Below are positions 3,159-3,880 of a DNA stretch of 10,496 nucleotides, piece after piece (within the stretch, counting starts at the first letter, position 1; each line of letters starts with the position of its first letter). This DNA comes from Firmicutes bacterium UBA1535 (lineage in GTDB: Bacteria; Bacillota; Clostridia; Tissierellales; Sedimentibacteraceae), in NCBI GenBank assembly GCA_002323775.1, contig DCPV01000051.1, forward strand, positions 1 through 10,496. Direction: 5' to 3'. The position numbers and the translations under genes are program-made. The notes beneath the pieces were generated by a model. That model worked only from the letters and a program-made list of their open reading frames with translations, was not told the origin of the DNA and did not search any database.

Positions 3159-3880
3159 ATGTTTAGAGTTGCAATATGTGATGATGAAAAAACTATATGT
3201 TCACAGATAGAAAAAGTAATATTAGATTATCAAAAAGATTGTGCTGAAGAAATAGATGTTTTAACTTTTTCATCCGGAGAAGAACTACATAAAATTATAA
3301 AAGATGGACAAGCCTTTGATTTGATTTTTCTTGATATTGAACTTGATAAATTAAATGGTATCGAAGTTGGTAAAATAATACGTGAAGAATTAAATGATAA
3401 TATTACACAAATCGTATATATTTCTGCAAATAAAGACTATGCAATGGAATTATTTGAAAATAGACCGCTAAATTTTTTGGTTAAGCCGATTTGCTGTGAA
3501 AAAATAATAAAAAATTTGAATGTAGCAATTAATTTACATAAAAATAGCAATTTTTTTTTGAGGTTTATTGCAATTATAATTTCACTAAAATACCATATAA
3601 AAAAATTATGTATTTTGAAAGCAATGATAAAAAAATCAATATAATTACAATAGATGAAAAGTATGAATATTACGGCAAATTATCAGAATTGAAAAAAGAA
3701 GTAAAAGAAAAAGATTTTATACAAATCCACAAATCTCATTTGGTTAATTATCAATACATAGTTGAAGTAAGTTATGAAAAAATTATATTGACTAATGGTG
3801 AGGAATTAAATATTAGTCAATCATATAGAAAAGAAGTAAGAAATAATCTTAAGATGAGAAGAAAGGAGCTTTATAGATGA
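3159..3880 (+). CDS. agrA: AgrA-like LytTR response regulator, reading frame broken at a T9 tract
   Basis: A response regulator of the AgrA type, split by a one-base frame difference. The first frame (3159-3644) gives a receiver domain: acidic pocket C-D-D-E at residues 7-10, phosphoacceptor D59 in F-L-D-I, S89 and K109 in V-K-P. At the nine T of 3551-3559 the meaningful reading passes to the -1 frame, giving N-F-F-F-E-V-Y, then I-P-Y-K-K-I-M-Y-F-E-S, then I-Q-I-H-K-S-H-L-V-N, all classic LytTR DNA-binding motifs, ending at 3880. Joined, the protein is 240 residues, the normal AgrA length; unshifted it stops at 3642-3644 (161 residues) without DNA-binding domain. I choose ATG 3159 over the in-frame ATG 3150 because GGGGG abuts the latter and stands nine bases before the former. 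The stop overlaps the agrC start (ATGA). Explanations: mutation, phase variation, programmed slippage or sequencing error. Confidence 0.82.
3551..3559 (+). other. T9 tract at the agrA frame break, possible slippery site
   Basis: Nine T follow the codon start AA, read as AAT TTT TTT TTG in the incoming frame. The T TTT TTT within it fits the X XXY YYZ pattern for -1 ribosomal slippage, and a -1 shift here gives exactly the LytTR frame. One extra U added by RNA polymerase slippage would do the same. No strong stimulatory hairpin is evident downstream. Confidence 0.6.

What the first reader, a model, noticed from the sequence alone, without database searches (positions are those of the whole stretch)
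3159..3880. AgrA response regulator split exactly at a T9 tract: slippage switch or decay
The receiver domain and LytTR domain are in different frames and join perfectly at nine consecutive T. A -1 shift, or one extra U, restores a 240-residue AgrA of normal length with all motifs. The incoming frame reads AAT TTT TTT TTG, which contains a T TTT TTT slippery heptamer. Both halves keep their key residues, and agrC, agrD and agrB are intact, so decay, if any, is recent. The unshifted product is a receiver without DNA-binding domain, which could itself titrate AgrC phosphate. A homopolymer indel is also the commonest kind of sequencing error.
Basis: partly seen in the sequence, partly recalled or inferred. 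Interest (0 to 1): 0.78.

Follow-up and report, generated by a model that had tools for sequence, protein, structure and literature searches.

The report
Broken agrA gene at nine Ts
In one DNA record from a Sedimentibacter-like anaerobe, the gene for the quorum-sensing regulator AgrA is cut in two by a single-base frame break at a run of nine Ts, while other records hold the same protein whole; it is most likely a recent, perhaps leaky, broken copy or a sequence error rather than an evolved switch.

Summary
In an otherwise intact agr locus of a Sedimentibacter-like bacterium, the receiver (3159-3644) and LytTR (to 3880) parts of AgrA lie in different frames that meet inside T9 at 3551-3559. 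An intact 240-residue homologue (P0002; cluster of 3 sequences, 2 contigs) matches 131 of 131 residues before the junction and 90 of 90 of the LytTR piece; the broken form was seen in 1 sequence, the window. The pure T run is not the relatives' state: of 13 close intact homologues 12 have Leu and 1 Ser, none Phe, where a pure in-phase T run gives Phe; 0 of 32 relatives read as DNA carry nine or more T there. So no conserved slippage signal and no T-only partner allele was seen. One point favours leaky rescue: in samples of two single-contig family genomes, coding A/T runs fall sharply from eight (90 and 78 seen; 114 and 97 expected) to nine or more (4 and 8 seen; about 65 and 56 expected). Best reading: a recent one-base break, null or leaky (a 'pseudo-pseudogene'); next, a record error. 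An evolved switch is unlikely. Agr loss through homopolymers is known in Staphylococcus aureus.

The parts
3143..3148 (+). SD-like GAGGGG before the agrA start at 3159
   Evidence: read from the sequence; spacing fits ATG 3159 better than ATG 3150
3159..3644 (+). agrA, receiver piece: 161 codons then stop; residues after 131 are out of register with homologues
   Evidence: ORF, Pfam Response_reg, P0001/P0002
3551..3559 (+). T9 tract where the two frames meet
3560..3880 (+). agrA, LytTR piece in the -1 frame (first ATG at 3608); no SD seen before 3608, so separate translation is doubtful
   Evidence: ORF, Pfam LytTR, 90 of 90 identical to P0002
3877..5169 (+). agrC, sensor kinase, open; its ATG overlaps the TGA that ends the LytTR piece
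5340..5367 (+). dyad CAGTTA...TAACTG upstream of agrD, possible AgrA-type operator (idea recalled, not tested)
5395..5538 (+). agrD, cyclic peptide precursor, 47 aa
   Evidence: TIGR04223 E 1.4e-12
5544..6122 (+). agrB, peptide processing protein
   Evidence: Pfam AgrB E 2.1e-41

Best explanation
The window carries a real, recent one-base frame break in the linker between the two domains of AgrA, in an otherwise complete agrA-agrC-agrD-agrB quorum-sensing locus of a Sedimentibacter-like anaerobe. Shown: the break lies in a pure T9 run, intact copies of the same protein exist, and the pure run is not the relatives' state. Inferred: the change that broke the frame also produced (or lengthened) the run. 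The linker is prone to this because it encodes adjacent Phe residues, nearly always written TTT here. Inferred consequence: the main product is a receiver without its DNA-binding domain, so the peptide signal can be made and sensed but not answered. Because nine is the length at which A/T runs become avoided in coding DNA of this family, a minority of transcripts may carry a changed run and give some full-length AgrA, making the allele leaky rather than null.
For: Both pieces match the intact P0002 (131 of 131 residues before the junction, 90 of 90 after), so the break is recent. P0002 stands for 3 member sequences (clustered at 90%) on 2 contigs, P0001 for the window alone. The other main genes of the window are open, and 10 runs of 7-8 A or T lie inside frames that stay open, one of them in the LytTR piece (positions set against the ORFs), which argues against a platform that errs at every long run. 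Linker hot spot: Phe at alignment position 134 in 104 of 120 and at 133 in 56 of 120 listed proteins (the window's own included); TTT 91 against TTC 4 in seven window genes. Coding A/T runs of nine or more: 4 seen against about 65 expected (G844) and 8 against about 56 (G834), while runs of eight are near expectation (90 against 114; 78 against 97).
Against: One record only; no reads, RNA or second isolate. A consensus error cannot be excluded, and a Cys-rich stretch at 6264-6508 in two frames beside a G6 run might be a second break of the same kind in the window. The DNA of P0002's contigs could not be read, so the exact change is unknown. That the tract slips in this organism is inferred from avoidance of such runs in two relatives, which cannot separate slippage in replication from slippage in transcription.
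Confidence: 0.6

Rival explanations
1. Sequencing or assembly error: the organism's agrA is intact and the record is wrong at the run.
For: Intact homologue identical outside the junction; broken form seen in 1 sequence; the break sits in the longest homopolymer of the window; a possible second frame break beside a G6 run at 6341-6346, though that stretch has no known family or homologue.
Against: The pure T run also differs from the Leu (12 of 13) or Ser (1 of 13) of close homologues at this place, so a plain T miscount does not by itself turn their sequence into this record; 10 other runs of 7-8 in open frames are unharmed.
Confidence: 0.27
2. Slipped-strand phase variation: the tract length varies in the population and turns AgrA on and off, as reported for poly(A) tracts in Staphylococcus aureus agrA.
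For: A precedent in the same gene in another genus (PMC6686034 section 7; PMC7911514 passages); nine is beyond the length commonly tolerated in coding DNA of the family.
Against: No in-phase T-only allele seen: 0 of 13 close homologues have Phe at position 132; 0 of 32 relatives read have nine or more T there, one has eight.
Confidence: 0.07
3. Programmed recoding: transcriptional slippage (as reported for mxiE or dnaX) or -1 ribosomal slippage on T TTT TTT makes a fixed ratio of short and full-length AgrA as a regulatory device.
For: T9 and a T TTT TTT heptamer in the right phase.
Against: The tract is not conserved, whereas conserved run length is the sign of purposeful slippage named by Baranov et al. 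(PMC1088944, section 8); no stimulatory fold; intact homologues need no recoding.
Confidence: 0.06

Closest known systems
Agr phase variants of Staphylococcus aureus (Gor et al. 2019, PMC6686034; abstract, section 7 read)
   Same: Length change of a homopolymer inside agrA disrupts AgrA; two strains with such a poly(A) change reverted.
   Different: There reversion was observed in culture and the tract is poly(A). Here there is one record, poly(T), and no observed length variation.
Pseudo-pseudogenes with 9A/9T runs (Baranov et al. 2005, PMC1088944; passages, section 8 read)
   Same: A single frame-breaking change leaves a slippage-prone run of nine at the break, so some full-length product may still be made.
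   Different: Slippage here is not measured; the earlier state was probably an interrupted T run rather than a plain run of eight.
mxiE of Shigella and tssM1 of Citrobacter rodentium (transcriptional slippage; mxiE from passages of PMC1088944, tssM1 from the abstract of PMC4256274)
   Same: Two overlapping frames joined if an extra base is added at a homopolymer.
   Different: For those, slippage is reported (for tssM1 demonstrated, with both forms required). Here intact relatives are the rule and no slippage has been measured.
LytTR-family response regulator AgrA of agr loci
   Same: Receiver plus LytTR, next to agrC, agrD and agrB.
   Different: The copy in the window is split.

Membership tests
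agr quorum-sensing locus | agrB, agrD, agrC and agrA together | tested here: met
   Pfam/NCBIfam hits for AgrB, AgrD, the GHKL ATPase domain, receiver and LytTR
agr quorum-sensing locus | response regulator encoded in one open frame | tested here: not met
   two frames meeting in T9
Phase-variable contingency gene | different tract lengths in a population, one of them in phase | not testable with these tools
   no reads; the 13 close intact homologues carry Leu (12) or Ser (1), not Phe, at the place
Programmed transcriptional slippage gene | slippery run conserved among homologues | tested here: not met
   0 of 32 relatives with a T run of 9 or more at the junction
Programmed -1 ribosomal frameshift | slippery heptamer in phase | tested here: met
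   T TTT TTT at 3551-3557
Programmed -1 ribosomal frameshift | stimulatory structure downstream | tested here: not met
   fold of 3551-3650 z = -0.50, 57 of 200 shuffles fold at least as well
Pseudo-pseudogene (9A/9T) | a frame break that leaves a run of nine, with intact homologues elsewhere | tested here: met
Pseudo-pseudogene (9A/9T) | run length is slippage-prone in this organism and full-length product is made | tested here: inconclusive
   avoidance of nine or more in coding DNA of two family genomes; product not measured

The most novel reading that the evidence does not exclude
The broken allele corrects itself in part: the event that broke agrA left a T9 exactly at the length where this lineage's replication or transcription starts to slip, so cells make a mix of a receiver-only decoy and full-length AgrA and answer the peptide signal weakly or in a fraction of cells, a half-way state between working and dead quorum sensing.
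Probability: 0.15. Interest if true: 0.5.

Novelty: new member of a known kind. Interest (0 to 1): 0.3.

Why it matters
If real, it is a naturally caught loss (or weakening) of the Agr response in a Sedimentibacter-like anaerobe, parallel to the agr loss known in staphylococci, and a ready case to measure whether nine-base A/T runs slip in low-GC relatives of the clostridia. The sharp drop between runs of eight and nine in coding DNA of two family genomes is useful by itself: a frame break at a run of nine or more should not be annotated as a plain pseudogene there without RNA evidence.

Tried and rejected
Own-genome search for other agrA copies: no genome is held for the window. Same-species DNA: the one genome-contig scan with AgrC gave two distant loci (L001 51%, L002 25%), a viral-contig scan gave none, and whole-genome searches listed agrA at 51% identity at most, so the DNA of P0002's contigs could not be read and the exact change is not known. 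A phylum-wide search for a Sedimentibacter centre failed (0 of 398 at E 1e-90); the order-wide search found one (G844, best of 59 matches in 199 genomes). My first junction script read 15 minus-strand loci on the wrong strand; it was redone and only one search is used. Considered and rejected: separate translation of the LytTR piece (no SD seen before 3608, start inside the domain). Considered as a sign of poor sequence quality: the Cys-rich stretch at 6264-6508, split between two frames beside a G6 run; no family or homologue was found, so it decides nothing but is counted as a point for the error reading. Structure prediction was not run; it would not separate the rivals. Solved-structure search found 24 receiver-type sequences for the first piece and none at E 0.001 for the second.

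Full report
What is there. The window holds an agr-type locus on the + strand: agrA in two pieces (3159-3644 and to 3880), agrC 3877-5169, agrD 5395-5538, agrB 5544-6122, between an rlmM-like gene and an XRE-type regulator on one side and rlmB, a YacP-type gene, a sigma-H-type gene, tRNA-Thr and tuf on the other (the names rlmB, yacP, sigma-H and tuf are my reading of the sequence, rlmB being borne out). RlmB places the organism near Sedimentibacter: the closest named hits are Sedimentibacter sp. zth1 (81%) and S. acidaminivorans (75%), with unnamed proteins up to 99% (best 120 of 8000 listed).

The break. The receiver piece is in register with its homologues through codon 131, enters T9 at 3551-3559, and reads 30 more residues to a stop at 3642-3644. 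The LytTR piece lies in the -1 frame and picks up at once. The intact homologue P0002 has 240 residues; BLASTP gives 132 of 134 identical for the first piece, both differences lying in the junction (131 of 131 before it), and 90 of 90 for the second. P0002 represents 3 member sequences (clustered at 90% identity) on 2 contigs; P0001, the broken form, represents the window alone (best 120 of 482 listed). So the break is recent, and intact copies are what other records show.

Is the tract old or a device? In the alignment of P0002-P0014 (linker reprinted), 12 of 13 have Leu and 1 has Ser at residue 132; none has Phe. A T-only run in phase could encode only Phe there. The relatives' run is therefore not the same T-only run at another length, and the window's pure run arose with, or shortly before, the break (inference). 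In DNA, 32 relatives were read at this place: the best match of each of the 12 top genomes of a class-wide search of 391 genomes, in which 100 genomes had a match at E 1e-20 or better, and 20 loci of a family search, in which 20 of 27 genomes had 22 matches at E 1e-45 or better (two second copies were not read). None has nine or more T, one has eight, two have seven, two have six. All 32 are open, but the search ranks whole matches first, so this is no estimate of how often agrA is broken. By the criterion of Baranov et al. (conserved run length among homologues; PMC1088944 section 8) this is not purposeful slippage.

Why there? The linker conserves adjacent aromatic residues (Phe at position 134 in 104 of 120 listed proteins, at 133 in 56 of 120, the window's own included), and Phe is almost always TTT in this organism (91 TTT, 4 TTC in seven window genes). 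The place is thus prone to T runs in low-GC relatives, and a one-base change can join or extend them.

Does nine matter? I sampled twenty 20-kb stretches from each of two family genomes whose main contig is about the size of the genome: G844 (nearest by RlmB at 81%; its contig length, 3,133,930, is that listed for Sedimentibacter sp. zth1) and G834 (RlmB 71%, has an agrA). A/T runs were compared with an order-3 Markov expectation (5 simulations each) in crude coding DNA (longest ORFs of 100 aa or more) and in the rest (whole-sample counts for G844). Coding runs of eight are near expectation (90 against 114.0; 78 against 97.2). Runs of nine or more collapse (4 against 64.6; 8 against 56.2). The other DNA shows the same drop, less strongly (10 against 26.0; 6 against 20.6). 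Nine is therefore the length at which runs become costly in these genomes, which fits slippage in replication, transcription or both; the data cannot separate them. The ORF-based definition may push a few frame-breaking runs out of the coding class, but the drop is present in both classes.

Artefact or real? For error: one record, the longest homopolymer, an intact homologue otherwise identical, and a possible second frame break beside a G6 run in a Cys-rich stretch of unknown standing (6264-6508). Against: ten other runs of 7-8 A/T lie in frames that stay open, the other main genes are open, and a plain miscount of T does not by itself explain the absence of the homologues' Leu. I put a real break at 0.6 and an error at 0.27.

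Recoding signals. T TTT TTT is in phase (3551-3557), but I see no SD-like stimulator upstream (by eye), and folding of the 100 bases from the tract on gives z -0.50. The LytTR piece has no SD that I can see before its first ATG. I give programmed recoding 0.06.

What it would do. From established knowledge of the family: AgrC phosphorylates AgrA, whose LytTR domain activates agr promoters. Inferred: a receiver-only product cannot bind DNA; it might compete for phosphate from AgrC. agrC starts on the stop codon of the LytTR frame (3877-3880), so coupled translation of agrC may also drop, although an SD-like AGGAG precedes it.

Context. Agr loci break in several ways: in Staphylococcus aureus, poly(A) changes in agrA and a duplication with inversion in agrC were found in variants that revert (PMC6686034 section 7; PMC7911514 passages). 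Among the 32 relatives here, agrC matched in one frame over nearly its full length in 24, as a partial single piece in 3, not at all in 3 (one of them on a locus that ends soon after agrA), and in two separate pieces in 2 (L009, a short tandem duplication seen by eye; L032, an internal loss). Literature searches: agrA with homopolymer, frameshift and phase variation (6 papers); transcriptional slippage with homopolymeric, frameshift and bacterial (34, 15 listed); mxiE with transcriptional slippage (17, 6 listed); agrA with frameshift, Clostridium and agrBD (5); Sedimentibacter with agr and quorum sensing (6). Of these I read only the parts named above and the abstract of PMC4256274; the rest were seen as listings. 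No title or listed abstract start in those searches reports this locus.

Verdict. The most likely nature is a recent, possibly leaky broken allele or, next, a record error; an evolved switch is unlikely. It is of modest interest and a new member of a known kind.

Noticed in passing
L039-L058 (G844) and L059-L078 (G834): A/T runs fall sharply between length eight and nine in two Sedimentibacter-family genomes (coding runs of nine or more: 4 against about 65 expected, 8 against about 56 expected), which looks like a slippage threshold.
   Followed up: partly
window 6264-6508: Cys-rich coding-looking stretch downstream of agrB, split between two frames beside a G6 run (6341-6346); no Pfam or NCBIfam family and no homologue found. 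Possibly a small peptide gene with its own frame break.
   Followed up: partly
L009 2223-3514: agrC of an unnamed relative lies in two frames, with a short tandem duplication at the break, recalling the agrC duplication reported in S. aureus.
   Followed up: partly
L032 2234-2468: agrC of a genome of the same family as G844 has lost most of its middle, while agrA beside it is open.
   Followed up: no
L001 1-2541: Contig named Anaerocolumna sp. with agrD 74% and agrB 50% identical to the window, but agrC matches only from residue 126 on and no agrA match precedes it.
   Followed up: no
window 5340-5367: Dyad CAGTTA...TAACTG just upstream of agrD, a candidate AgrA-type operator.
   Followed up: no
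protein P0049: Its C-terminal tail SYTHLRAHETRHDLV looks like the translated sequencing-adapter artefact known from databases (recalled), not a natural end.
   Followed up: no
proteins P0053 and P0061: Two other receiver-only AgrA homologues (152 and 146 aa, longest contigs about 15 kb) end at or shortly after the same linker; their DNA was not readable.
   Followed up: no
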